This document shows positions 32,914-53,323 of a DNA stretch of 64,000 nt, piece after piece. Both the position numbers and the translations under genes were made by a program. Origin of the DNA: Myxococcus hansupus (GTDB lineage Bacteria > Myxococcota > Myxococcia > Myxococcales > Myxococcaceae); NCBI RefSeq assembly GCF_000280925.3, contig NZ_CP012109.1:7832501-7896500 (forward strand). Reading direction: 5' to 3'. Below the pieces are notes generated by a model. The model saw only the letters and a list, made by a program, of their open reading frames with translations, made no database searches and had not been told where the DNA came from. The first letter of the stretch is position 1, and each line of letters starts with the position of its first letter.

Positions 32914-34221
32914 TCAGCGCACCGTGGCCTGACTCAGGGCCCGGTGCACCGACTCCAGGGCCTTGCGCGCCTCCAGCAGCTCGGCGCGCTCGGCGGTGAG
33001 CGAGGCCACCTGCTGGGCCAGCACGTCGCGCTCGCCCTGGAGCGCCTCCACGGCGCGGCGCAGGGACGTGGACTCGTCCTGGGCCGTCTCCAGTTCGCCG
33101 GCGAGCCGCTCTTCCTCGGCCAGGCTGTCCACCAGGGACTGCTTGCCGCGAGCGACCTCTTCTTCCAGGGCCTCGTGCTCCTTGGCCGCGGCGTGCAGCG
33201 CCTGACGCGTCTCCTGGAGCGACAGCAGCGCCTCGTCACGCTCGCCCTCCAGCGCGGCCAGCTCCCGCTCCAGGTCGGCCAGCAGCTTCACGCGGCCTTC
33301 CATCTCCGCGGACAGGCGGCGCGCCTCGTCCATGCGCAGCCGGGCCTCCTCGGTGGCCTTCTCCGCCTGACGGCGCGACACCTCGAGGTCCTGCGTGAGG
33401 GACAGGTTGAGCGCCTTCACCTTCACCAGCTCCGCCTGGAGCGTGGTGATGCGCTCCACCGCGCGCTGGCCCGCCTCCGCCACGGTGGCGGGCAGGGGCT
33501 CCGGACGCGGATTCTCACGCACCGCCTTGAGCCGGGCCTTCAGCCGCTCGCGGCGGGACGCGGCGTCCTGCGATTCGTCGCGCGGCGGGGCCGGACGCTG
33601 CACCTCCACCTGGGTGGGCGGCGCTTCGACACGGGCCACCGGCTCCGCCACGGTGGCGGTGACATGCGGCATGGAGACAGGGGCCGACGCCTGCGTCATG
33701 GGGTGCGCCTCCGGAGGAGGACTGACGGCGGCCATGGGGCCGTCGAAGTGCAGCGCCTGGGGCGGCGCGGCGAACGTCATGGGTTCCGCGGGCGGCTCGG
33801 CGTCGAGCAGCGCCTCCACGTCCGGCGGCGGCGAGCCGAACGTGACGGGCGCGTCGGCGTAGGCCTCGGGCTCATCGGCGTAGGCCTCGGGCTCCTGCAC
33901 GGCGGGCGCGTCGATGGGCGCCTCGTCCTCCAGGGACGCGGCGTAGGCGGACTCTTCCGGCGCGGGCTCGTGCGAGCGCAGGGCGACGTCCATGGCCTGG
34001 GCGGCGGAGGGACGCGGAGCGCGGGAGCGCTCGATGCGGGCGCGCACCTCGGCGGAGAGGTCGGGGGCCTCGGCGGTCGCCTCGGGCGCGGCGGCGGAGG
34101 CCTCTTCGGGCTCCTGCTCGGCGGAAGGCGTGGGCTCGACGGGGTCGACGAGCCCGGTCAGCGCGCCCAGGCGGAGGCGCGGCTTGGCGCGGGACACGTT
34201 CTGTTCAAAGGCTTTCTTCAT
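32914..34221 (-). CDS. pomX: Cell-division positioning protein PomX
   Basis: A 435-residue scaffold. The first 22 residues (MKKAFEQNVSRAKPRLRLGA...) match the PomX peptide known to activate the PomZ ATPase, including K13 and R15. An Ala/Pro/Glu-rich disordered stretch follows to about 215. The rest is a long coiled coil from SRRERLKARLKAVREN to the end. This is the described PomX plan (N-terminal activating peptide, disordered domain, C-terminal coiled coil that polymerises); M. xanthus PomX is about 404 residues. In that organism the PomXYZ cluster rides the nucleoid to midcell and promotes FtsZ assembly. The ATG is 5 nt after the pomZ stop. Confidence 0.93.
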   Translation of the reverse strand: MKKAFEQNVSRAKPRLRLGALTGLVDPVEPTPSAEQEPEEASAAAPEATAEAPDLSAEVRARIERSRAPRPSAAQAMDVALRSHEPAPEESAYAASLEDEAPIDAPAVQEPEAYADEPEAYADAPVTFGSPPPDVEALLDAEPPAEPMTFAAPPQALHFDGPMAAVSPPPEAHPMTQASAPVSMPHVTATVAEPVARVEAPPTQVEVQRPAPPRDESQDAASRRERLKARLKAVRENPRPEPLPATVAEAGQRAVERITTLQAELVKVKALNLSLTQDLEVSRRQAEKATEEARLRMDEARRLSAEMEGRVKLLADLERELAALEGERDEALLSLQETRQALHAAAKEHEALEEEVARGKQSLVDSLAEEERLAGELETAQDESTSLRRAVEALQGERDVLAQQVASLTAERAELLEARKALESVHRALSQATVR

Positions 34222-34226
34222 GGTTC

Positions 34227-35186
34227 TCAGCCGGCCTGCTGGGTGCCCTTCTTCTGGGCAGCGGCTGCCGCGGCCACCAGCCGGGGCAGGATGTTGTCAA
34301 TCATGGCCTGGATGTCGTTGGCACCCTTGGACGACGGGTCCGCGACGAACACCGGCCGGCCCTCACTGGAGGCCTGCGCGAACTTGGTGCACTGCCGGAT
34401 GATGGTGGGCAGCAGGAACTCCGGATAGTGCGTCTGGAGCGCCTCCAGGGCCTCCTTCGCCAGCTTGAAGGTGGCGTTGAAGGAGTTGACCACGATGAAG
34501 ACGTGGTCGAGCACGTGGTTCAGGTCCTCCTCCAGGCTCTGCACCGTTTCGAACAGCAGCTTGAGGCCGTGGAAGGACAGGAAGTCCGCGAGCACGGGGA
34601 CGAACAGGTCGTTCGCCGCCATCAGCGCGTTGAGGTTGAGCAGGCCGAAGGACGGAGGCGCGTCGAAGACGACGACGTCGTACTGGGCCTCCACGTCCTT
34701 GAGGGCGTTGCGCAGCTTGAACTCGCGGCCGGCCATGGGCATCAGCGCGAGGTCCACCGTGGACATGGTCAGGTTGGACGGGACGAAGTCCAGGTTGGGC
34801 AGCGAGGACTTCTGGATGACCTTGGCCAGGGGCGTCTTGCGGACGAGGACGTCCAGGAGGGTCTTCTCGAAGTCCTCACCCTCGTAGCCCAGGCACTTGG
34901 TGGCGTGGCCCTGGCTGTCGAGGTCGATGAGGAGCACCGCGTAGCCCAGCTCCGCGAGGCGCCACGCGTAGGACGTGGACAGCGACGTCTTGCCGGTGCC
35001 GCCCTTGAAGTTGAGAAAGAGCTGACGCCGGTGGCCCAGGCGCGCCGGGAACCGGTCGAGCGTGGTGCGCAGTTCCCAGATGTCGTCCGGCGTGTAGGCG
35101 TCCTTCCGCGATTCCTCCGGAATCTGCTTCGGGGACACGCCGAGCATCTCGGCGACCTGCTTGGAGCTGTACGTCGGCGCTTCCAT
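34227..35186 (-). CDS. pomZ: ParA/MinD-family ATPase PomZ
   Basis: A 319-residue ParA-type ATPase that binds the nucleoid as an ATP dimer and moves the PomXY cluster to midcell. Deviant Walker A KGGTGKTS has K61 and K66, switch I VLLIDLDSQG has D90, and Walker B VVVFDAPPS is present; the K66 and D90 numbers equal those of the M. xanthus protein. The N-terminal about 45 residues contain a MerR-like helix (SSKQVAEMLGVSPKQI). The gene lies between pomY (40-nt gap) and pomX (5-nt gap), the order known from M. xanthus. Confidence 0.96.
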   Translation of the reverse strand: MEAPTYSSKQVAEMLGVSPKQIPEESRKDAYTPDDIWELRTTLDRFPARLGHRRQLFLNFKGGTGKTSLSTSYAWRLAELGYAVLLIDLDSQGHATKCLGYEGEDFEKTLLDVLVRKTPLAKVIQKSSLPNLDFVPSNLTMSTVDLALMPMAGREFKLRNALKDVEAQYDVVVFDAPPSFGLLNLNALMAANDLFVPVLADFLSFHGLKLLFETVQSLEEDLNHVLDHVFIVVNSFNATFKLAKEALEALQTHYPEFLLPTIIRQCTKFAQASSEGRPVFVADPSSKGANDIQAMIDNILPRLVAAAAAAQKKGTQQAG

Positions 35187-35226: not shown

Positions 35227-37809
35227 TCAAGCGGCGAAGTATTTGTGCCCCCTTCGAATCACCGCTCCCCGTGCGGACAACAGGGTGAGCGCCTCCTGGG
35301 CGAGCTCCGAGGGGGCCGAGAGCGCGACTGCCAGCTCGACGAGCGAGCGGCCACGCACGGCCATGCGGACCTCGGTCAGCATCTGGGTGCAGAGTGCTTC
35401 CACGGGGGACACGCTGGAGCGCGCGGGTGCCGGACGGGCGGGCTCGGGGGCGCGGGGCGCGGGGGTGGACTGGCCCGGCACGGCGCCCATGGCGACGAGG
35501 GCCGCCTGGACGGGAGACAGTCGAGCAGAAGGCGCGGGCGCCGGGGCTCGAGGTGCCGGCGTGGGGCCTGGAGCCTTGGCGGCGACCTGGGCCTGGGGCG
35601 GATTCCCCGGGGTGGCCGGGCGCTGCGCGGGTGCGGGGGCGCCGGCAGTGCGCGCCGGTGCACCGGGCCCAGCGACAGAGGGGCCACCCTGGGCCGAGCC
35701 CGGCGTGGACGCGGGGGCGCCGCGAGCGGAACTCGCGTTGGCGGGTGCCACGGCTCCAGGTACGGGGGTCCCGCCGGAGCCGGTCCGCGCAGGCGTCGAG
35801 GACGGCCCGCCCGTAACCTGCGGCGGGGAGGCAGCGCCCTGCGTGGCCGCGGCAGCACCAGCGCCGTGAGGCACGTTGCTCGGAGCAGCCCGAGCCTGCG
35901 TCACAGCGCCTGCGCCGTTCTGGGGGGCACGCGCCTGCGACATAGGCGCCGCGCCTTGCACCCCACCAGCCTGAGCGACGTGACCGTGAGATGCGGGCAC
36001 AGCGCCGTTCTGAGGGGCACGTGCCTGCGACATAGGCGCCGCGCCTTGCACCCCACCAGCCTGAGCGACGTGACCGTGAGATGCGGGCACAGCGCCTTGC
36101 ACAGCGCCGTTCTGAGGGGCACGCGCCTGAGCCACGGGCGCCGCGCCTTGCACTCCACCAGTCTGAGCAACATGCCCGTGCGACGTGGCCACCGCGCCTT
36201 GAATTCCACCGGCCTGAAGCGCACGTGCCTGAGGCGCCGTCACCGCGCCAGGAACCACACCGCCGGGCGCGTTCAGCGCCTGCGCGGACACCGGCGCACC
36301 AATCGCCGCCTGGCGGACCCCTGCGCCCACGGCCGCGACGGCATACGCGGGCTGTTCCACCACCGCCTGGACGTGAACCGCCTCCGGCGCCACGGCAACC
36401 ACCGGTGCCACGGCCTGCGTCACCGCTCGGGGCTCCTCCAGCCGCGCTCGCACGGGCTTCACGGGCAGCGTCGCCAGCCGGCGAATCTCCCGGCGGCGGT
36501 GCGTGTCGTCCAGGGACACCACGGCGGAGACATCCTGCCCCAGGATGCGCGACAGGCTCTGCGCCGCGGCCTTGCGCACGCGCACCTCCCGGTCACCCAG
36601 CGCCCCCAGCAGCAACGTGCGCGCGCTCTCTCCACTGCCCGCGCCCAGCGCCAGCGCCGCGAGGGCGCGCGCTTCCGGGTCCGCGTCGTGGATGGCCTCT
36701 TCACCCAGCCGCCGCGCCGTCTCGCCTTCCAGCCCCAGCGCCAGCAGCGACGCCCGGCGCCGCACCGAACGGTCCGAGTCCTTCATCGCCTGCGCCAGAT
36801 GCGGCGCCGCGTCCTTCGGCGCCAGCGTCAGCAGCGCCTTGAGCGCCGCGATGCGAACCTCGGGCACCGGCGACGCCAGCAGCGGCGACACCACCGAAGC
36901 GCCCTCTTCCTGGCACAGCGACGCGAACGCCTGGAGCAGCGCCACCTGCGCCGTCGGGTCCGTCTCCGCGTGCAGCGCCGACGCCAGCGCGGGCGCCGCG
37001 GCTGACTGCGACAACGCCTTCAGCCGCTCCGCCGCGCGCACCCGGGCCGCCGAGTCCTGCGCCGACAGCTCGCGGATGGAGAACCCGAAGAGCGTCTCAT
37101 CGGTCCCCCCGCCAAACCCCGCGTGCGAGGACAGCTCCGCATGCTGCGCCGCGCTCACGCCCAGCCGGCCCGCCTGGAGGAACCGCTGCGCCTCGCGCGC
37201 CACCGGCGACAGGCCGTCCCCGTCGACAGTCGGCGCCACGGGCGGCTCGCTCACCGGCGCGGGCGTCATCAGCGTCGCCGGGGCGACCGTCTCCCGCAGC
37301 GCCACCGACGAGCCGCGCGTGGGGACCACGAGCCCGCGCGCGACCGGCCCGTTCTCACCGCGCAGGATGACCTCGCTGCGGAGCTGCGAGATGAACGAAG
37401 CCAGGTCCAACCCCAGGTCGTCGTCCTCGTCGTCCCGCTCCTGGGCGGTCGCACGGATGCGGCCGACGTCCAGGAGCTTGTCCATCATCTGGTTCCGCTC
37501 GGCGCGCATGACCTGGTTGAGCCGGTTGAGCTCCTCGCGCTCCGCCTGGAGGCGGCCCACGCGGACTTCCAGCTCCGCCACCTCACGGCGTAGGCCCAGC
37601 TCGCGCTGATGCGTCTCCGCCACCTCGCGCTTGAGGTGCTCCATCTCCTCGCGTGTCGAAGCCAGCTCGCTGTGGAGCTGTTGGGCACGCGCCTCGAAGT
37701 AGACGATCTTTTCGAGTGCGCTCTTGAGCAGCGCGTCCGGACGCTCGTCGCTCACGACCTCAACAGCCTCCCCGCGAGGCACGCGGCGCGGCCTGCGGAT
37801 CCGAGTCAC
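35227..37809 (-). CDS. pomY: Cell-division positioning protein PomY, repeat-expanded
   Basis: An 860-residue protein from a GTG. N-terminal coiled coil (about 25-125: EKIVYFEARAQQLHSELAS ...), a HEAT-repeat block (about 260-450: AAAPALASALHAETDPTAQV, EVRIAALKALLTLAPKDAAP), then a long Ala/Pro/Gly/Gln-rich region (about 460-790) and a helical C-terminus ending RGAVIRRGHKYFAA. This is the coiled coil-HEAT-Pro-rich plan of PomY, which activates PomZ and bridges to FtsZ. M. xanthus PomY is about 680 residues; the excess lies in the low-complexity part, which holds tandem repeats of 30-34 residues. Confidence 0.92.
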   Translation of the reverse strand: MTRIRRPRRVPRGEAVEVVSDERPDALLKSALEKIVYFEARAQQLHSELASTREEMEHLKREVAETHQRELGLRREVAELEVRVGRLQAEREELNRLNQVMRAERNQMMDKLLDVGRIRATAQERDDEDDDLGLDLASFISQLRSEVILRGENGPVARGLVVPTRGSSVALRETVAPATLMTPAPVSEPPVAPTVDGDGLSPVAREAQRFLQAGRLGVSAAQHAELSSHAGFGGGTDETLFGFSIRELSAQDSAARVRAAERLKALSQSAAAPALASALHAETDPTAQVALLQAFASLCQEEGASVVSPLLASPVPEVRIAALKALLTLAPKDAAPHLAQAMKDSDRSVRRRASLLALGLEGETARRLGEEAIHDADPEARALAALALGAGSGESARTLLLGALGDREVRVRKAAAQSLSRILGQDVSAVVSLDDTHRRREIRRLATLPVKPVRARLEEPRAVTQAVAPVVAVAPEAVHVQAVVEQPAYAVAAVGAGVRQAAIGAPVSAQALNAPGGVVPGAVTAPQARALQAGGIQGAVATSHGHVAQTGGVQGAAPVAQARAPQNGAVQGAVPASHGHVAQAGGVQGAAPMSQARAPQNGAVPASHGHVAQAGGVQGAAPMSQARAPQNGAGAVTQARAAPSNVPHGAGAAAATQGAASPPQVTGGPSSTPARTGSGGTPVPGAVAPANASSARGAPASTPGSAQGGPSVAGPGAPARTAGAPAPAQRPATPGNPPQAQVAAKAPGPTPAPRAPAPAPSARLSPVQAALVAMGAVPGQSTPAPRAPEPARPAPARSSVSPVEALCTQMLTEVRMAVRGRSLVELAVALSAPSELAQEALTLLSARGAVIRRGHKYFAA
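35910..36231 (-). repeat. Tandem repeats inside pomY (90-102 bp units)
   Basis: Three full units and a fragment. Encoded units follow QARAxQNGA-(VQGA)-V, then PASHGHVAQAGGVQGAAP. The two copies starting near 35915 and 36004 are almost identical at DNA level (90-bp period). The next, at 36106, carries 12 extra bp (VQGA), and a fourth is more diverged. The periods are multiples of three, so the reading frame is kept. Near-identity implies recent duplication or homogenisation. Confidence 0.85.
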
Positions 37810-45346: not shown

Positions 45347-46798
45347 ATGCTCGAAGCCACCGCCGCCGTCGAGTCGCAGCCCTCCTCCGACCCCGCTCAC
45401 ATCCGCGCCGTGTTCGAAGCCCAGCGCGCGCACCGCTGGACGATGTCCCGCACCACCGCCGCCGAGCGCATCGCCCGGCTCAAGCGCCTGCGCGAGGCCA
45501 TCATCACCCGCCGCAATGAGCTGGCGGACGCCATCCACGCGGACTTCCGCAAGCCCGCGGTGGAGGTGGAGCTGACGGAGCTGCACCCCACGCTGGAGGA
45601 GCTGAACCACACGGTGAAGCACCTCAAGGGGTGGATGAAGCCCTCGCGCGTGGGCACGCCGATGCTGCTGGCGGGCTCGTCCAGCTACGTGCGTTATGAG
45701 GCGCGCGGCACCGTGCTGCTGCTGGCGCCGTGGAACTACCCGTTCAACCTGGTGGTGTCGCCGCTCATCGCCGCCATCGCCGCGGGAAACACCGTGATGT
45801 GCAAGCCCAGCGAGAAGACGCCGAACACCTCGCGCTTCCTCGCGCGGCTGGTGAAGGACGTGTTCCCGGAGAACGAGGTGGCGCTGTTCGAGGGCGGCGC
45901 GGAGACGGCGGAGGCGCTGCTGGACCTGCCCTTCGACCACATCTTCTTCACCGGCAACACGCGCATTGGCCGCATCGTGATGGAGGCCGCGGCGAAGCAC
46001 CTGGCCAGCGTGACGCTGGAGCTGGGTGGCAAGTCGCCCGTCATCATCGACGAGACGGCGGACATCGACGCCGCGGCGGAGCGCCTGTGCTGGGGCAAGT
46101 TCATCAACGGCGGCCAGACGTGCGTGGCGCCGGACCACGTGTTCGTGCACGCGTCGAAGGAGCGAGCGTTCCTGGACGCGATGAAGGCGGCCATCACCCG
46201 CTTCTACGGCGGCACGGAGCAGGAGCGGCAGGCGAGCCCTGACTTCACGCGGCTGGTGGACCCGGCGGCATGGCGGCGGGTGAAGGACCTGCTCGACCGC
46301 TCGGTGGCCGCGGGCGCGAAGGTGGAGGTGGGCGGGGAGGCGGACGGGCCCTCGCGCTACATCGCGCCCACCGTGCTCTCGGGCGTGACGACGGACAACC
46401 CGGTGATGGAGTCCGAAATCTTCGGGCCGCTGATGCCGGTGCTGACCTACCAGTCGCGGGAAGAGGTCTACGCGCACATCCGCTCGGGTGGGAAGCCGCT
46501 GGCCCTCTACGTCTTCAGCCAGGACAAGCGGACCGTGGACGACATCCTCCAGAACACCACCTCCGGCGGGACGCTGGTGAACAACGTCCTGGTGCACCTG
46601 GCCAATCCCAACCTGCCCTTCGGCGGCGTCGGCACGAGCGGCCTGGGGAATTACCACGGCCATTTCGGCTTCAAGACCTTCAGTCACGAGCGGGCGGTGA
46701 TGGTCCAGTGGATGAAGTCGCTGGCTTCAGTGTTCTTCCCGCCGTACCGCGGGAAGATGCAGGAAATGGCCTCCCGCGCGACCCGGATGATGGAGTAG
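45347..46798 (+). CDS. Aldehyde dehydrogenase (class 3-like), copy 1
   Basis: A 483-residue NAD(P)-dependent aldehyde dehydrogenase oxidising aldehydes to acids. LLAPWNYPFNL begins the cofactor domain, CKPSEKTPN is the cofactor lysine segment, Glu225 is in LELGGKSP and the catalytic Cys259 in NGGQTCVAPDHV. NPNLPFGGVGTSGLGNYHG marks the oligomerisation end. The C-terminal FPPYRGKM is typical of class 3/YwdH types that act on long-chain or aromatic aldehydes. AGGAG precedes the ATG. Nearly 60% similar by eye to the next gene. Confidence 0.95.
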   Translation: MLEATAAVESQPSSDPAHIRAVFEAQRAHRWTMSRTTAAERIARLKRLREAIITRRNELADAIHADFRKPAVEVELTELHPTLEELNHTVKHLKGWMKPSRVGTPMLLAGSSSYVRYEARGTVLLLAPWNYPFNLVVSPLIAAIAAGNTVMCKPSEKTPNTSRFLARLVKDVFPENEVALFEGGAETAEALLDLPFDHIFFTGNTRIGRIVMEAAAKHLASVTLELGGKSPVIIDETADIDAAAERLCWGKFINGGQTCVAPDHVFVHASKERAFLDAMKAAITRFYGGTEQERQASPDFTRLVDPAAWRRVKDLLDRSVAAGAKVEVGGEADGPSRYIAPTVLSGVTTDNPVMESEIFGPLMPVLTYQSREEVYAHIRSGGKPLALYVFSQDKRTVDDILQNTTSGGTLVNNVLVHLANPNLPFGGVGTSGLGNYHGHFGFKTFSHERAVMVQWMKSLASVFFPPYRGKMQEMASRATRMME

Positions 46799-46860: not shown

Positions 46861-48300
46861 ATGCGCGTGGTACGGCTGGAAGAAGAGCGGATGCCGGCGG
46901 GCTTGCAGGAGGCATTCGACCGCCTCCGGGCGAACCGCTGGGAGATGGCGCGTCGCGGCGTGAAGGAGCGCCTGGCCCGGCTGGAGACGCTCAAGGAGCA
47001 ACTGGTCGCTCGCCGCGAGGCCCTGGCGGACGCGCTCTACGCCGACTTCCGCAAGCCGCGCGCCGAGGTGGAGGCCACCGAGGTCCTCCCCGTGCTGATG
47101 GAGCTGGCCTACATCCAGAAGCACCTCAAGTCGTGGATGAAGCCCCGCAAGGCCTCCACGCCGCTGCTCCTCACGGGCACCTCCAGCCACGTGCAGTACG
47201 AGCCCCGGGGCGTGGTGCTGGTACTGGCGCCGTGGAACTACCCGTTCCACCTGCTGATGTCGCCGCTGGTGGCCGCCGTCGCCGCGGGCAACACCGTGAT
47301 GTGCAAGCCCAGCGAGAAGACGCCGAACACGGCGCGCTTCATCGCGGAGCTGCTGAAGGACGTGTTTCCGCCCGAGGAGGTCGCGCTGGTGGAGGGTGGC
47401 CCGGAGGTGGGCGAGGCGCTCTTGCGGCTGCCCTTCGACCACTTCTTCTTCACCGGCGGCTCCCGCGTGGGCCGGCGGGTGATGGAGGCCGCGGCGAAGC
47501 ACCTGGCCAGCGTGACGTTGGAGCTGGGCGGCAAGTCGCCCGTCATCGTCGACGAGACGGCGGACGTGGACACCGCCGCCGAGCGCGTGGTGTGGGGCAA
47601 GTTCCTCAACGGCGGACAGACGTGCATCGCCCCGGACCACGTCTGGGTCCACGCGTCCAAGGAAGAGGCCCTGCTGGAGGCGATGAAGGCCGCCCTGGAG
47701 CGCTTCTACGGACGCACCGAGGAGGCCCGCCGCGCGAGCACGGACCTGTGCCGCATGGTGGATGACAGCGCCTTCATGCGGGTGCGCCGGTTGATGGACC
47801 GCACCGTAGAGGCCGGAGCGCGCGTGGTGACCGGCGGCGGGCTGGACGCGGATTCGCGCTACATCGCGCCCACGATTCTCGCGGACGTGACGCCGGACGC
47901 GCCCATCATGGACGAGGAGATTTTCGGACCGGTGCTTCCGGTGCTGCGCTTCGAGTCCCTCGACGACGTGCTGACGCAGCTTCGCGAGGGTGGCAAGCCC
48001 CTGGCGCTCTATGTGTTCAGCCAGCACGAGGCCACGGTGGAGCGGCTGCTGCGGGAGACACGCTCCGGCGGCGCGTGCGTCAACACGGTGGTGCTGCACA
48101 ACGTGAATCCCAACCTGCCCTTCGGCGGCGTGGGCCAGAGCGGCGTGGGCGCCTACCACGGCGAGACAGGGTTTCGGACCTTCAGCCATGAGCGCGCGGT
48201 CCTGCGCCAGGGGCGCACGTCGCTGGTCCACCTGTTCTTCCCCCCGTACACGGGTAAAGCGCAGAAGCTGGCGCGGCTGGCGAGCCGCCTGTTCGAGTAA
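46861..48300 (+). CDS. Aldehyde dehydrogenase (class 3-like), copy 2
   Basis: A 479-residue paralogue of the preceding enzyme with the same blocks: APWNYPFHL, CKPSEKTPN, Glu221 in LELGGKSP, Cys255 in NGGQTCIAPDHV, and a C-terminal FPPYTGKAQKLARL. ATG with AAGGAG 9 nt before. The pair appears to be an old tandem duplication: long blocks such as MEAAAKHLASVTLELGGKSP are identical in both. Differences concentrate in the N-terminal 40 residues and the C-terminal entrance loop, so substrate range may differ. Confidence 0.95.
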   Translation: MRVVRLEEERMPAGLQEAFDRLRANRWEMARRGVKERLARLETLKEQLVARREALADALYADFRKPRAEVEATEVLPVLMELAYIQKHLKSWMKPRKASTPLLLTGTSSHVQYEPRGVVLVLAPWNYPFHLLMSPLVAAVAAGNTVMCKPSEKTPNTARFIAELLKDVFPPEEVALVEGGPEVGEALLRLPFDHFFFTGGSRVGRRVMEAAAKHLASVTLELGGKSPVIVDETADVDTAAERVVWGKFLNGGQTCIAPDHVWVHASKEEALLEAMKAALERFYGRTEEARRASTDLCRMVDDSAFMRVRRLMDRTVEAGARVVTGGGLDADSRYIAPTILADVTPDAPIMDEEIFGPVLPVLRFESLDDVLTQLREGGKPLALYVFSQHEATVERLLRETRSGGACVNTVVLHNVNPNLPFGGVGQSGVGAYHGETGFRTFSHERAVLRQGRTSLVHLFFPPYTGKAQKLARLASRLFE

Positions 48301-49937: not shown

Positions 49938-50507
49938 ATGACCGACTCGTCTCACGCCCTCACAGCCGCGACCCGCGACGGGGGCTTCCTGTCGCGACTG
50001 CCCACGGTGCTGCAACCGCACCGGAGCCTGCTCACCTACTACTTGGTCAGCGCGCTGCTGGCCGGGCCCGGCTTCCCCATCCTGGGGCTCATCCGCTACT
50101 TCAAATACCAGACGCTGCGCTACACGCTGGACGCCGAGGGCATCACCGTCCGCTGGGGCATCTTCTTCCGGCGCGAGGTGTCCCTGACGTACGCACGCAT
50201 CCAGGACATCCACCTGTCCAGCAACGTGGTGGAGCGCTGGCTCGGGCTCGCGCGGATTCAAATCCAGACGGCCAGCGGCAACGCGCAGGCGGAAATCACC
50301 ATCGAGGGCATCCCCGACTACGGCGCCCTGCGGGACTTCCTCTATTCGAAGATGCGGGGGAGCCGGGAGCGCCACGCGCCCGCGAGCGACGCCGCGCAGG
50401 TCGCGGCCGCGGGTTCGGATGAGCTGGCGGCGACGCTCCGGGAGATTGCCTCGGAGGTGCGGGCGCTGCGGTTGAGCCTGGGCAGCGGGGAGAAGCAGGA
50501 TGTCTGA
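49938..50507 (+). CDS. Membrane-associated PH-domain (bPH2/DUF304-like) protein 1
   Basis: A 189-residue protein. Helical segment about 28-50 (YYLVSALLAGPGFPILGLI), then a bacterial PH domain: YTLDAEGITVRWGIFFRREV, SLTYARIQDIHLSSNVVERW, LGLARIQIQTASG. The C-terminal tail is a short helix (ELAATLREIASEVRALRLSL). It overlaps the next gene by 8 nt. Pairs of YdbS/YdbT-type PH proteins form envelope complexes of unknown function. Confidence 0.88.
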   Translation: MTDSSHALTAATRDGGFLSRLPTVLQPHRSLLTYYLVSALLAGPGFPILGLIRYFKYQTLRYTLDAEGITVRWGIFFRREVSLTYARIQDIHLSSNVVERWLGLARIQIQTASGNAQAEITIEGIPDYGALRDFLYSKMRGSRERHAPASDAAQVAAAGSDELAATLREIASEVRALRLSLGSGEKQDV

Positions 50508-51267
50508 CGCCTCGCACGGCTGGCTCCTGCGCCTGTTGAAGGTGCCCCCCGCGCCCCACATCCCCGAGGGGGCGGCGGTTCGCGTCTTCCGCTCCGCGCC
50601 GTCCCACCGCCACCTCCAACTGCTCCGCTGGGGCCTGCGGCAGTTCGGCGTCATCGTGGGTCTGCTCTTCACGTGGATCGCGGTGAAGAACCGGTTCGTC
50701 CCGCACATCCCCTACCAATACGCGGACACGGTCTTCTTCGTCGTCGAGCTGTTTGCGTGGCTCGCGTTCGCGGTGCAGGTCCCCATCACCTTCCTGGTGG
50801 CGTGGCTCGACTACGAGTACCGCTGGTACATCCTCTCCGACCGGAGCCTGCGCATCCGGGAAGGGCTCGTCTCGCTTCAGGAGAAGACGATGACCTTCGC
50901 GAACATCCAGCAGGTCTCCATCCGGCAGAACCCGCTCCAGCGGCTGTTCGGCATCTCCGACGTGAAGGTGGAGACGGCGGGTGGCGGCGGAAGCAGCGGC
51001 CCCAAGGACGTGGACGCAGCGGCCCACGAAGGGCTGCACGAGGCCCACTTCCGGGGCGTGGACAATCCGGAGGAGATTCGCGACGTCATCATGGCGCGGG
51101 TGCGCATGCACCGGGACGCCGGACTGGGCGAGCCGCTGCATCCCGAGCCGGCCCTGCCGCTCTCCACGGCGCCCTCGGCCGAGACGCTCGGCGCGGCGAA
51201 GGAGCTGCTGGGGGAGATGCGGGCGCTCCGGAGCGCCCTGGCGGCGAAGGGCCGCGTGGAGCCCTGA
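50500..51267 (+). CDS. Membrane-associated PH-domain (bPH2/DUF304-like) protein 2
   Basis: A 255-residue partner of the preceding gene. Two membrane helices (about 48-62 and 78-105), then the PH domain: YRWYILSDRSLRIREGLVSL, MTFANIQQVSIRQNPLQRLF, GISDVKVETAGG. A variable tail ends with a helix LLGEMRALRSAL similar to that of its partner, perhaps for pairing. The 8-nt overlap indicates coupled translation. Confidence 0.88.
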   Translation: MSDASHGWLLRLLKVPPAPHIPEGAAVRVFRSAPSHRHLQLLRWGLRQFGVIVGLLFTWIAVKNRFVPHIPYQYADTVFFVVELFAWLAFAVQVPITFLVAWLDYEYRWYILSDRSLRIREGLVSLQEKTMTFANIQQVSIRQNPLQRLFGISDVKVETAGGGGSSGPKDVDAAAHEGLHEAHFRGVDNPEEIRDVIMARVRMHRDAGLGEPLHPEPALPLSTAPSAETLGAAKELLGEMRALRSALAAKGRVEP

Positions 51268-51273
51268 GCACAC

Positions 51274-51417
51274 GCGGCGCCGACGCCCCGCATCGACGTT
51301 CCCGCAGAGACACCGCTCGGCGGGACACGCGCGGCGCCAACGCCCTGCATCGACATTCCCGCGGAGACACCGCTCGGCGGGGCACGCGCGGCGCCAACGC
51401 CCTGCATCGACGTACCC
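51274..51417. repeat. 57-bp intergenic tandem repeat, about 2.5 copies
   Basis: GCGGCGCC recurs at 51274, 51331 and 51388, exactly 57 bp apart, with the units between over 90% identical by eye (e.g. CCCTGCATCGAC, GAGACACCGCTCGGCGGG). It fills the gap between convergent PH-domain and ABC-F genes. Each unit contains CCGCTCGGCGGG, a short dyad (CCGC/GCGG). No gene is supported across it. Confidence 0.85.
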
Positions 51418-51517: not shown

Positions 51518-53140
51518 TCAGCTCCGCAGACCCGGCGCTTCCTGGCCGGTGCGCGCGACGTATTCGGTGTAGCCGCCGCCGTACTGGTGGATGCCCTCGG
51601 GCGTCAGCTCCAGCACGCGGTTGGACAGCGCGGCCAGGAAGTGACGGTCGTGCGAGACGAAGAGCATGGTCCCCTCGTAGCGGGACAGCGCCGTGATGAG
51701 CATCTCCTTCGTCGCCATGTCCAGGTGGTTGGTGGGCTCGTCCAGCACCAGGAAGTTCGGCGGGTCGAAGAGCATCTTCGCCATCACCAGACGGGCCTTC
51801 TCACCACCGGACAGCACGCGGCACTTCTTCTCCACCTCGTCACCGGAGAAGCCGAAGCAGCCGGCCAGCGCGCGCAGCGAGCCCTGTCCGGCGCGGGGGA
51901 ACGCGTCCTCCAGCGCCTGGAACACCGTGCGCTCACCGTCCAGCAGGTCCATGGCGTGCTGCGCGAAGTAACCCATCTTCACGCTGCCACCCAGGGCCAC
52001 GTTGCCCGTGTCCGGCTGCGTGGAGCCCGTCACCAACTTGAGCAGCGTGGACTTGCCGGCGCCGTTGACGCCCATGACGGCCCAGCGCTCCATGCGGCGC
52101 ACCAGGAAGTCCAGCCCCTCGTAGATGGTCCGCGAGCCGTAGGCCTTGTGAACGCCCTTCAGGCTCACCACGTCGTCGCCCGACCGGGGCGCCGGCTGGA
52201 ACTCGAAGAGCACCGTCTGGCGGCGCTTGGGCGGCTCCACGCGTTCAATCTTCTCCAGCTTCTTCACCCGGCTCTGCACCTGGGCGGCGTGCGAGGCGCG
52301 CGCCTTGAAGCGCTCGATGAACTTCAGCTCCTTGGCGAGCATGGCCTGCTGGCGCTCGAACTGCGCCTGCTGCTGCTTCTCGTTCATCGCCCGCTGCTGC
52401 TCGTAGAACTCGTAGTTGCCCGTGTACGTGGACAGCGAGCCGCCGTCGATTTCGACGACCTTGTTCACGATGCGGTTCATGAACTCGCGGTCGTGAGACG
52501 TCATCAGGAGCGCGCCGTCGTAGTTCTTGAGGAACTCCTCCAGCCAGATGAGGCTCTCGATGTCCAAGTGGTTGCTGGGCTCGTCGAGCAGCATCGAATC
52601 CGGGCGCATCAGGAGGATGCGGGCCAGGGCCACGCGCATCTTCCAACCGCCCGACAGCGCGCCCACGTCGCCGTCCATCATCTCCTGGGTGAAGCCCAGG
52701 CCCGCGAGAATCTCCCGCGCGCGGCCCTCCAGGGCGTAACCACCCAGCTCCTCGAAGCGACCCTGGACCAGGCCGTAGCGCTCCACGAGCTTGTCCATGT
52801 TGTCCGCCTGGTCCGGGTCGGCCATGGCGGCCTCCAGGTCCTTCAGCTCGGCGGCCACCACGCTCACGGGGCCCGCGCCATCCATGACCTCGGCGGCGGC
52901 GCTGCGGCCCTCCATCTCACCCACGTCCTGGCTGAAGTAGCCAATGGTGACGCCCCGGTCGACCGCGACCTGGCCTTCGTCGGGGTGCTCCTGGCCGGTG
53001 ATCATCCGGAACAGCGTCGTCTTGCCGGCGCCGTTGGGACCGACGAGCCCGACCTTCTCCCCCTTGTGGAGTGCCGCGGAGGCCTCGATGAAGAGAATCT
53101 GCTGGCCGTTCTGCTTGCTGATGTTGTCGAGACGAATCAT
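51518..53140 (-). CDS. ABC-F family ATPase (ribosome-associated type)
   Basis: A 540-residue soluble protein with two ABC domains and no membrane part, i.e. an ABC-F translation factor that binds the ribosomal E site. First domain: GPNGAGKTT, ALSGGWKMRV, LLDEPSNHLD. The linker between them (about 250-310) is the helical PtIM: EKQQQAQFERQQAMLAKELK. Second domain: GVNGAGKST, LSGGEKARLV, LDEPTNHLD. Closest in layout to YbiT-type members; a resistance role is possible but not indicated. Confidence 0.95.
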   Translation of the reverse strand: MIRLDNISKQNGQQILFIEASAALHKGEKVGLVGPNGAGKTTLFRMITGQEHPDEGQVAVDRGVTIGYFSQDVGEMEGRSAAAEVMDGAGPVSVVAAELKDLEAAMADPDQADNMDKLVERYGLVQGRFEELGGYALEGRAREILAGLGFTQEMMDGDVGALSGGWKMRVALARILLMRPDSMLLDEPSNHLDIESLIWLEEFLKNYDGALLMTSHDREFMNRIVNKVVEIDGGSLSTYTGNYEFYEQQRAMNEKQQQAQFERQQAMLAKELKFIERFKARASHAAQVQSRVKKLEKIERVEPPKRRQTVLFEFQPAPRSGDDVVSLKGVHKAYGSRTIYEGLDFLVRRMERWAVMGVNGAGKSTLLKLVTGSTQPDTGNVALGGSVKMGYFAQHAMDLLDGERTVFQALEDAFPRAGQGSLRALAGCFGFSGDEVEKKCRVLSGGEKARLVMAKMLFDPPNFLVLDEPTNHLDMATKEMLITALSRYEGTMLFVSHDRHFLAALSNRVLELTPEGIHQYGGGYTEYVARTGQEAPGLRS

Positions 53141-53323
53141 GTGCGTGCGGGGGGCCCGGAAGCGGGTGCGGCGCCCTTATGCCACGTAGCGCGCCCCGGG
53201 AAGAATGTTCCGAACCCCTGGAAAGTGACTTCTCTTGCACGGAAGCGGGCAGGCGGCGGGGCCCCCGGCCCCAGGCTGGAAGTGGGACCTGCCCCCACTC
53301 GGGCCGTGGCGTAGAGTCCGCCC

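What the first reader, a model, noticed from the sequence alone, without database searches (positions are those of the whole stretch)
35910..36231. Recently duplicated repeats enlarge the disordered part of PomY
Units of 30-34 residues (QARAPQNGA..., PASHGHVAQAGGVQGAAP) occur three to four times, two nearly identical at DNA level, and PomY is about 180 residues longer than in M. xanthus. PomY condensation with PomX is known to matter for FtsZ recruitment, so copy-number change in this region may tune cluster properties.
Basis: partly seen in the sequence, partly recalled or inferred. Interest (0 to 1): 0.6.

Follow-up and report, generated by a model that had tools for sequence, protein, structure and literature searches.

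The report
Repeat-built spacer in PomY division protein
A floppy stretch of a protein that helps myxobacteria divide at mid-cell keeps being rebuilt from short repeats that differ from lineage to lineage, so its length changes quickly while its chemical character largely stays the same.

Summary
The repeats are real. In pomY (window 37755-35227, minus strand, 842 aa from the conserved GTG start) eight 17-residue (51-bp) units lie head to tail at 36264-35878. The sister genome (G080) has the same unit family in other order and number and is 26 aa shorter. So copy number varies, but the newest copies explain at most about 64 of the 160 aa excess over M. xanthus.

[quoted passage not shown] Periods run from 15 to 90 bp, and units fall into 18 dissimilar families. 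In the clade with the alpha5 helix, 30 arrays hold 7 acidic residues in 1,618. The window's segment is the longest of the 85.

Published work says this C-terminal region is not needed for cluster formation but for PomZ activation and mid-cell positioning. I read the array as a length-tolerant, composition-constrained disordered tether rather than chiefly a condensate tuner. Length variability was already published; the repeat mechanism I did not find in print.

The parts
35227..37755 (-). pomY coding sequence, GTG start, 842 aa plus stop
   Evidence: Start fixed by V-SDERPDALL, present in 22 of 22 loci, with the upstream text diverging between clades; stop.
37435..37740 (-). N-terminal coiled-coil helix (residues 6-107)
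   Evidence: AlphaFold2 model helix 6-107; residues 11-90 have block pLDDT 92-94; named PomY-CC in PMC10307791.
36463..37092 (-). HEAT-repeat array (about residues 222-431)
   Evidence: Helical repeats in the model; RRLATLP anchor at 425-431.
35515..36462 (-). disordered linker between HEAT and alpha5 (residues 432-747), 316 aa; longest of 22 rows; HEAT-to-gD segment longest of 85
   Evidence: pLDDT under 50 over 435-643 and 645-746, no secondary structure.
36211..36264 (-). repeat unit W1 (18 aa, QAR kind)
36160..36210 (-). repeat unit W2 (17 aa, SHGHV kind)
36109..36159 (-). repeat unit W3 (17 aa, QAR kind)
36058..36108 (-). repeat unit W4 (17 aa, SHGHV kind)
36007..36057 (-). repeat unit W5 (17 aa, QAR kind)
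   Evidence: 96% identical DNA to W7
35968..36006 (-). repeat unit W6 (13 aa, SHGHV kind, 4 residues shorter)
   Evidence: 39 of 39 shared bases identical to W4
35917..35967 (-). repeat unit W7 (17 aa, QAR kind)
35878..35916 (-). partial repeat unit W8 (13 aa)
   Evidence: the similar partial unit in G080 is S6
35491..35514 (-). alpha5 helix (PVQAALVA, residues 748-755), predicted PomZ-binding element in M. xanthus
   Evidence: Helix 748-755; same text as residues 584-592 of the 682-aa form (PMC13170346).
35230..35409 (-). C-terminal globular domain (residues 783-842; gD, wHTH in PMC13170346)
   Evidence: 60 aa from the SPVE anchor in 20 of 22 rows; the other two rows end before it.
34227..35186 (-). 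pomZ (ParA/MinD-type ATPase)
   Evidence: ORF; identified by gene context and recalled family features, no separate search run.
32914..34221 (-). pomX (435 aa, acidic N-terminal IDR)
   Evidence: ORF; N-terminal peptide MKKAFEQNVSRAKPR shared with related loci.

Best explanation
The feature is an in-frame minisatellite inside the disordered tether that joins PomY's scaffold half (coiled coil plus HEAT, which binds PomX and condenses) to its C-terminal PomZ-activating half (alpha5 plus gD). Units are gained and lost by slippage or unequal recombination (inferred). The protein tolerates this as long as the frame stays open and, in this clade, the insert stays disordered, almost free of acidic residues and weakly basic. 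The array acts as a spacer: its length sets how far, and at what effective concentration, the PomZ-activating element can reach from the PomX/PomY cluster to DNA-bound PomZ. Because the function rests more on composition than on sequence, lineages have rebuilt the spacer from units of their own. Shown here: the array, its unit structure, copy-number change, dissimilar units in different lineages, composition, predicted disorder, partial constraint. Shown in print for M. xanthus: which parts condense and which activate PomZ. Inferred: the mutational mechanism and the reach/effective-concentration role.
For: Arrays at the same place with different units: 30 of 85 PomY loci (the window included) have a TRF array with score 100 or more that none of 200 codon shuffles reaches; periods 15-90 bp, all 30 multiples of 3. 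The 30 arrays fall into 18 sequence families at z>5 against residue shuffles; each family of two or more is confined to one clade of the PomY core tree. Length turnover sits in this segment: among 66 (overlapping) pairs under 8% core divergence the median difference is 26 aa in the HEAT-to-gD segment against 1 aa in the CC-HEAT core, and alpha5-to-gD spacing stays 29-40 aa. Composition: 30 arrays of the alpha5 clade, 1,618 aa, 7 D/E, 62 K/R, 44 H, 79% A/V/P/Q/G; window residues 498-746 hold 0 D/E in 249, while the window's PomX IDR (23-222) holds 38 D/E in 200. Constraint between copies is weak but present: omega 0.69 (0.56 with a nucleotide-identity filter) against 0.80-1.15 (0.79-1.25) in 200 neutral simulations. 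Disorder. By position after the shared AVAAVGA..RQA text, the array begins about where the M. xanthus region 496-682 begins, which is required and sufficient for PomZ activation.
Against: No measurement of length versus PomZ activation exists here or in the passages read. M. xanthus PomY lacking 438-488 activates PomZ fully, so part of the tether is dispensable in vitro. In the 18 tree rows outside the alpha5 clade the segment is only 45-118 aa; 1 passes the shuffle test and 0 score 100 or more, so a long repeat-built spacer is not needed for PomY function as such. Of the 43 rows of the alpha5 clade 13 do not pass the shuffle test. Low acidity is not universal: the array of G102, outside the tree, has 4 D/E in 60, and the 24 loci outside the tree have 6.2% D/E in the segment against 1.7% and 1.8% in the two tree groups. 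New units are copied from existing acid-poor text, so the shared composition is partly inherited. The omega deficit could be partly codon bias or gene conversion.
Confidence: 0.55

Rival explanations
1. One reading: the repeats are stickers or spacers that change PomY condensation with PomX and so FtsZ recruitment; copy number is an evolved tuner of cluster properties.
For: In vitro the IDR changes the PEG dependence and separation factor of PomY, the IDR binds PomX in pull-downs, and no truncation complements the deletion (PMC10307791, passages). In PopZ, halving or doubling the IDR changes saturation concentration and mobility (PMC9512792, passages).
Against: The coiled coil alone is sufficient for condensation in vitro, CC-HEAT clusters mostly co-localise with constrictions, and loss of 496-682 leaves cluster formation intact. 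PopZ's tuned IDR has a narrow length distribution in Caulobacterales (93 +/- 1 aa), whereas the PomY segment spans 127-351 aa within one clade.
Confidence: 0.17
2. Near-neutral filler: a repeat-prone, GC-rich, disordered stretch where in-frame copies come and go with no consequence; only frame and solubility are selected.
For: Neither sequence nor length is highly conserved (PMC13170346). Closely related pairs gain or lose a whole array (G004 166 aa against G076 245 aa at 4.6% core divergence). No PomX-length correlation across the family (contrasts r=0.19, p=0.16). Distant loci do not keep the low acidity.
Against: Copies differ less in amino acids than neutral simulation predicts. Acidic residues are nearly absent in the 30 arrays of the alpha5 clade, which span 16 of the 18 unit families plus two weaker arrays. 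Arrays concentrate in the clade that has alpha5 (30 of 43 rows against 1 of 18), which may still be one historical event.
Confidence: 0.28
3. Assembly or consensus artefact in the window's genome: collapsed or expanded copies.
For: No reads were available. The longest exact repeat in the segment is 74 bp, which short-read graphs can mishandle. The same assembly shows a frame break inside the IF-2 gene's N-terminal part, so local errors are possible.
Against: The genome is one contig of 9,490,432 bases. The 90-bp copies carry two distinguishing sites and the frame stays open through the array. A different assembly, the sister genome's, has the same unit family, and 29 further strong arrays occur in other assemblies.
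Confidence: 0.04

Closest known systems
PomY of Myxococcus xanthus (MXAN_0634; PMC13170346, PMC10307791)
   Same: Same gene, followed by pomZ and pomX, coiled coil, HEAT, disordered segment, same alpha5 motif, 60-aa C-terminal domain. M. xanthus-like genomes also carry an array, of 14-aa units at residues 514-559 of the 682-aa form in G007.
   Different: Unit sequence and period differ (17 against 14 aa); the linker is 316 aa here against 151 and 167 in L003 and L002.
PopZ disordered linker, Caulobacter (PMC9512792, passages)
   Same: Disordered spacer in a condensate-forming organiser of the bacterial cell, with composition conserved and sequence not.
   Different: PopZ linker is acidic and of narrow length, not described as repeat-built in the passages seen; the PomY linker of this clade is acid-poor and hypervariable.
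Periscope proteins, variable-length bacterial surface adhesins (PMC8201768, search listing only)
   Same: Gene length variation through repeated domains changes how far a binding part projects.
   Different: Folded domains as units, at the cell surface; here short disordered units in a cytoplasmic protein.
FtsZ C-terminal linker (recalled, no call)
   Same: Disordered, sequence- and length-variable tether in a division protein.
   Different: FtsZ open frames are 424 aa in 8 of 8 genomes of the window's clade, so its linker length does not vary there.

Membership tests
PomY orthologue | N-terminal coiled coil plus HEAT repeats, high identity to PomY of named Myxococcus genomes | tested here: met
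   96, 93 and 92% identity (best segment) over 443-449 residues to L001, M. xanthus AM003 and Myxococcus sp. CA023; model.
PomY orthologue | alpha5 motif and 60-aa C-terminal globular domain | tested here: met
   PVQAALVAMG at 748 and the last 60 residues from SPVE.
PomY orthologue | Neighbours pomZ and pomX | tested here: met
   ORFs at 34227-35186 and 32914-34221; a PomX with the N-terminal motif found for 73 of 85 loci. PomZ was not searched for in the other loci.
Coding minisatellite (in-frame tandem repeat) | Head-to-tail copies beyond chance, period a multiple of 3, open frame | tested here: met
   Score 382, 0 of 300 shuffles; unit table.
Coding minisatellite (in-frame tandem repeat) | Copy number differs between close relatives | tested here: met
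   Window 8 units against 6 in G080, last one partial in each; G001, G007, G086, G085 have 3.1 to 5.2 copies of 42 bp.
Coding minisatellite (in-frame tandem repeat) | Copy number differs between strains of the same species | not tested
   The genome search holds one genome per species; no second strain of the window's species was obtained.
Condensate-tuning IDR (PopZ-like) | Narrow length distribution within the clade | tested here: not met
   127-351 aa in the alpha5 clade against 93 +/- 1 in PopZ of Caulobacterales.
Condensate-tuning IDR (PopZ-like) | Changing IDR length changes condensate properties | not testable with these tools
   Needs purified or in vivo variants.

The most novel reading that the evidence does not exclude
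In the window's clade the disordered arms of the two PomZ activators change length together. PomX (activating peptide at the tip of its N-terminal IDR) and PomY (alpha5 at the end of its linker) reach the same PomZ dimer, so a longer arm in one partner may select for a longer arm in the other; repeat turnover in PomY would be the fast side of a matched two-arm system. Eight genomes: PomX 404-440 aa, PomY segment 191-351 aa, contrasts r=0.91, p=0.0017, while FtsZ and DnaX open frames do not change there. Against it: no relation in the other 17 Myxococcus genomes (r=0.001), r=-0.41 (p=0.19) in genus g14, r=0.19 (p=0.16) over 55; the genus-wide r=0.57 (p=0.003, 25 tips) rests on this clade. The extra PomX text of G006, G079 and G000/G080 looks alike, so it may be old and lost in the other four, and the number of independent joint changes is unknown. 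The clade was singled out after seeing the data.
Probability: 0.1. Interest if true: 0.65.

Novelty: new member of a known kind. Interest (0 to 1): 0.42.

Why it matters
PomY is one of two ATPase activators in a division-positioning system that also condenses, and how its disordered part works is open. The family provides a natural series of spacers: 18 dissimilar unit families by my clustering, and segment lengths from 45 to 351 aa among the 61 tree rows, attached to conserved ends. That makes 'does tether length, composition or sequence matter?' testable by swapping natural linkers into M. xanthus PomY. It also shows how quickly a disordered region of a division protein can be rebuilt by repeats while its conserved ends stay in place.

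Tried and rejected
Mobile or regulatory DNA repeat: a 192-bp piece of the array (35917-36108) gives 32 matches in its own genome; 2 lie in pomY and the other 30 have E of 0.24 or more. Rejected.

Repeats caused by a general lengthening of disordered proteins in this clade: FtsZ open frames are 424 aa and DnaX 406 aa in 8 of 8 genomes; IF-2 open frames give no consistent increase (1010 in the window's genome, 888-1102 elsewhere), but that control is spoiled by a frame break in G000 and a shorter locus without the start motif in G001. These are three genes only.

Family-wide co-evolution of PomX and PomY length: raw Spearman 0.75 over 55 genomes shrinks to r=0.19, p=0.16 with contrasts. Not claimed.

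A first omega estimate (0.44) used an amino-acid identity filter, which biases it downward; replaced.

Overlapping antisense ORFs listed over the repeat: taken as GC-rich shadows, not followed.

Counts: the family search hit 88 of 96 genomes at E<=1e-30; I analysed 85 and did not fetch G066, G091 and G094. Of the 85, five are flawed (G054 and G058 with broken or shifted frames; G043, G041, G096 at contig ends) and stay in the 85; G043 is one of the 30 with an array. The tree holds 61 after dropping G054 and 23 loci with a core score of 1200 or less (G058 and G096 among them). Array calls rest on TRF thresholds: loci with faint repeats count as misses, and short related units may have been split into separate families. 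Named loci L001-L022 share contig lengths with G-handle loci in most cases and were not added to the 85.
Full report
WHAT IS THERE. The window lies in a single-contig genome of 9,490,432 bases. pomY is on the minus strand, followed by pomZ and pomX. The N-terminus V-SDERPDALL is present in 22 of 22 related loci while text upstream of it diverges between clades, so the start is the GTG at 37755 and the protein has 842 residues. The linker between the HEAT repeats and alpha5 holds eight units of 17 residues (the last partial, one shortened), two kinds alternating, at 36264-35878. TRF scores the array 382 on the coding sequence against a maximum of 83 in 300 codon shuffles. No other place in its own genome matches the array at E under 0.24.

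HISTORY OF THE ARRAY. W4-W5 and W6-W7 share 88 of 90 bases once a 12-base loss in W6 is allowed for, and both differences are synonymous. W2-W3 and W4-W5 differ at 20 of 102 bases. The sister genome G080 (L001, L043), at core dS 0.15, has the same unit family as QAR-QAR-SHGHV-QAR-QAR plus a partial unit, so the alternating expansion in the window is most simply later than the split or has been homogenised since; two substitutions are too few to date it. Outside the arrays the HEAT-to-gD segments of both are equally long (222 and 223 aa), so the 26-aa difference between the two proteins is array content.

THE FAMILY VIEW. A search of 96 genomes of the family found PomY in 88; I extracted 85 loci. 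The segment from the end of HEAT to the last 60 residues is 20-351 aa; the window has the longest. Thirty of 85 have an array with score 100 or more and 0 of 200 codon shuffles reaching it; all 30 periods, from 15 to 90 bp, are multiples of three. On a tree of 61 PomY cores, 43 rows form the clade with alpha5 (PVQAALVAMG; two truncated rows and one with a variant last residue are placed by the tree). Of these 43, 30 pass the shuffle test and 28 also score 100 or more; of the other 18 rows, 1 and 0; of the 24 loci left out of the tree, 4 and 2. Alignment of array peptides against residue shuffles splits the 30 strong arrays into 18 families (19 at a stricter threshold); each family with two or more members stays within one clade: 17-aa units in window and sister, 13-14-aa units in the M. 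xanthus group and G079, 16-aa units in G003/G005, 18-aa in G076/G078, 15-aa in G034/G035, a family within genus g14, and singletons. The number of families is not a count of independent origins, since old relatives may have diverged beyond recognition.

WHAT IS CONSTRAINED. The ends are fixed: alpha5-to-gD spacing 29-40 aa, gD 60 aa in 20 of 22 rows, the other two being cut by contig ends. Among 66 overlapping pairs with under 8% core divergence, median length difference is 26 aa in the segment, 1 in the core, 14 in PomX. In the alpha5 clade composition is shared: 7 acidic residues in 1,618 array residues, 79% A/V/P/Q/G, and 158 acidic against 579 basic residues in 9,194 residues of the whole segment. 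The other 18 tree rows are as acid-poor (1.8%), but the 24 distant loci are not (6.2%), and the array of G102 there holds 4 acidic residues in 60. Of the five other reading frames of the array DNA, four give 3.0-7.7% acidic residues and one gives 0.4% like the true frame, so the low acidity is not simply forced by the DNA, though that control is weak. Between copies of a unit, amino-acid change is rarer than under neutral simulation: omega 0.69 against a simulated range of 0.80-1.15, or 0.56 against 0.79-1.25 with a nucleotide filter. For comparison, the core gives dN 0.018 and dS 0.152 between window and sister. AlphaFold2 with 20 sequences in the alignment leaves 435-746 below pLDDT 50 apart from residue 644, with no secondary structure there, and finds a helix at 748-755 (mean pLDDT 53.9).

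WHAT IT PROBABLY DOES. Published work on M. xanthus assigns condensation to the coiled coil with modulation by the other parts, all three of which are needed for full function (PMC10307791, passages). It assigns PomZ activation to residues 496-682, which are not needed for cluster formation but for mid-cell localisation and PomZ recruitment (PMC13170346, sections 5, 9, 10, 11). G007 has a 682-aa PomY with VQAALVAMG at 584-592, the published numbers, so the numbering can be carried over: its array is at 514-559, inside 496-623, and the window's array begins at about the corresponding place. The array therefore lies in the tether that delivers alpha5 and gD. I favour a spacer whose length and chemistry matter more than its sequence. 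The acid-free tether stands against an acidic PomX IDR (38 D/E and 9 K/R in 200); an electrostatic reason is inference.

RIVALS. Condensate tuning is possible but less supported (see rivals). Neutral filler is the strongest rival and only weakly opposed by the omega and composition results. Assembly error is unlikely for the array as a whole, though exact unit number is unproven without reads; a frame break in IF-2 of the same assembly shows that local errors may exist.

CO-VARIATION WITH PomX. In the eight-genome clade of window and M. xanthus, PomX and PomY segment lengths vary together (contrasts r=0.91, p=0.0017, 7 contrasts). Over the 25 Myxococcus tips r=0.57, p=0.003, but without that clade (17 tips) r=0.001; in genus g14 r=-0.41, p=0.19; over all 55 r=0.19, p=0.16. 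The extra PomX text of G006, G079 and G000/G080 looks alike, so direction and number of changes are open. I report it as a lead found after the fact.

WHAT WAS KNOWN. PMC13170346 already states that neither length nor sequence of this segment is highly conserved among orthologues. I found no report that tandem repeats cause this. Searches: PomY with 'tandem repeat' (28 papers, 10 listed, none of the listed about this protein), papers with PomY and PomZ (13 papers, 12 listed), and 'tandem' in the main texts of PMC13170346, PMC10307791 and PMC7993993 (0 each). Supplements were not looked at; most subscription papers and all bioRxiv preprints are missing from that library.

VERDICT. A correct observation of an ordinary kind of event (coding minisatellite in a disordered linker) in an interesting protein; the added value is the recurrent rebuilding of the same tether, clade by clade, with composition largely kept.

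Noticed in passing
L144 (G000:C1, IF-2 gene region, about 6151189-6152937): In the window's genome the N-terminal start motif of IF-2 and its G domain lie in different frames, whereas they share one frame in 6 of 7 relatives (the seventh locus is shorter and lacks the motif). For an essential gene this suggests a sequence error or an unusual start.
   Followed up: partly
window 51269-51411: A second strong tandem array (57 bp, 2.5 copies, 93%, score 244) between convergent ORFs 50476-51264 (+) and 51521-53176 (-); apparently intergenic.
   Followed up: no
   Followed up: partly
L086 (G054) and L116 (G058): PomY open frames are broken or end in another frame in two single-contig genomes of the family; sequence error or real change not decided.
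   Followed up: no
PomY rows outside the Myxococcus/Corallococcus/Citreicoccus clade (18 tree rows): The alpha5 motif is absent or degenerate (such as AALAVMG, TALAIMG) and the segment is 45-118 aa, so on the 61-row tree the proposed PomZ-binding helix and the long linker go together. Among the 24 more distant loci some have long segments without the motif (G097 239 aa, G102 204 aa), so the link is not general.
   Followed up: partly
L010, about 3.0-3.2 kb upstream of the pomY start: A 76-bp tandem array of 3.5 copies (score 438), stronger than the pomY array of that locus.
   Followed up: no
window 45739-46203 and 47241-47705: Two minus-strand frames with similar beginnings, 1.5 kb apart, perhaps shadows of a pair of paralogous genes on the other strand.
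   Followed up: no
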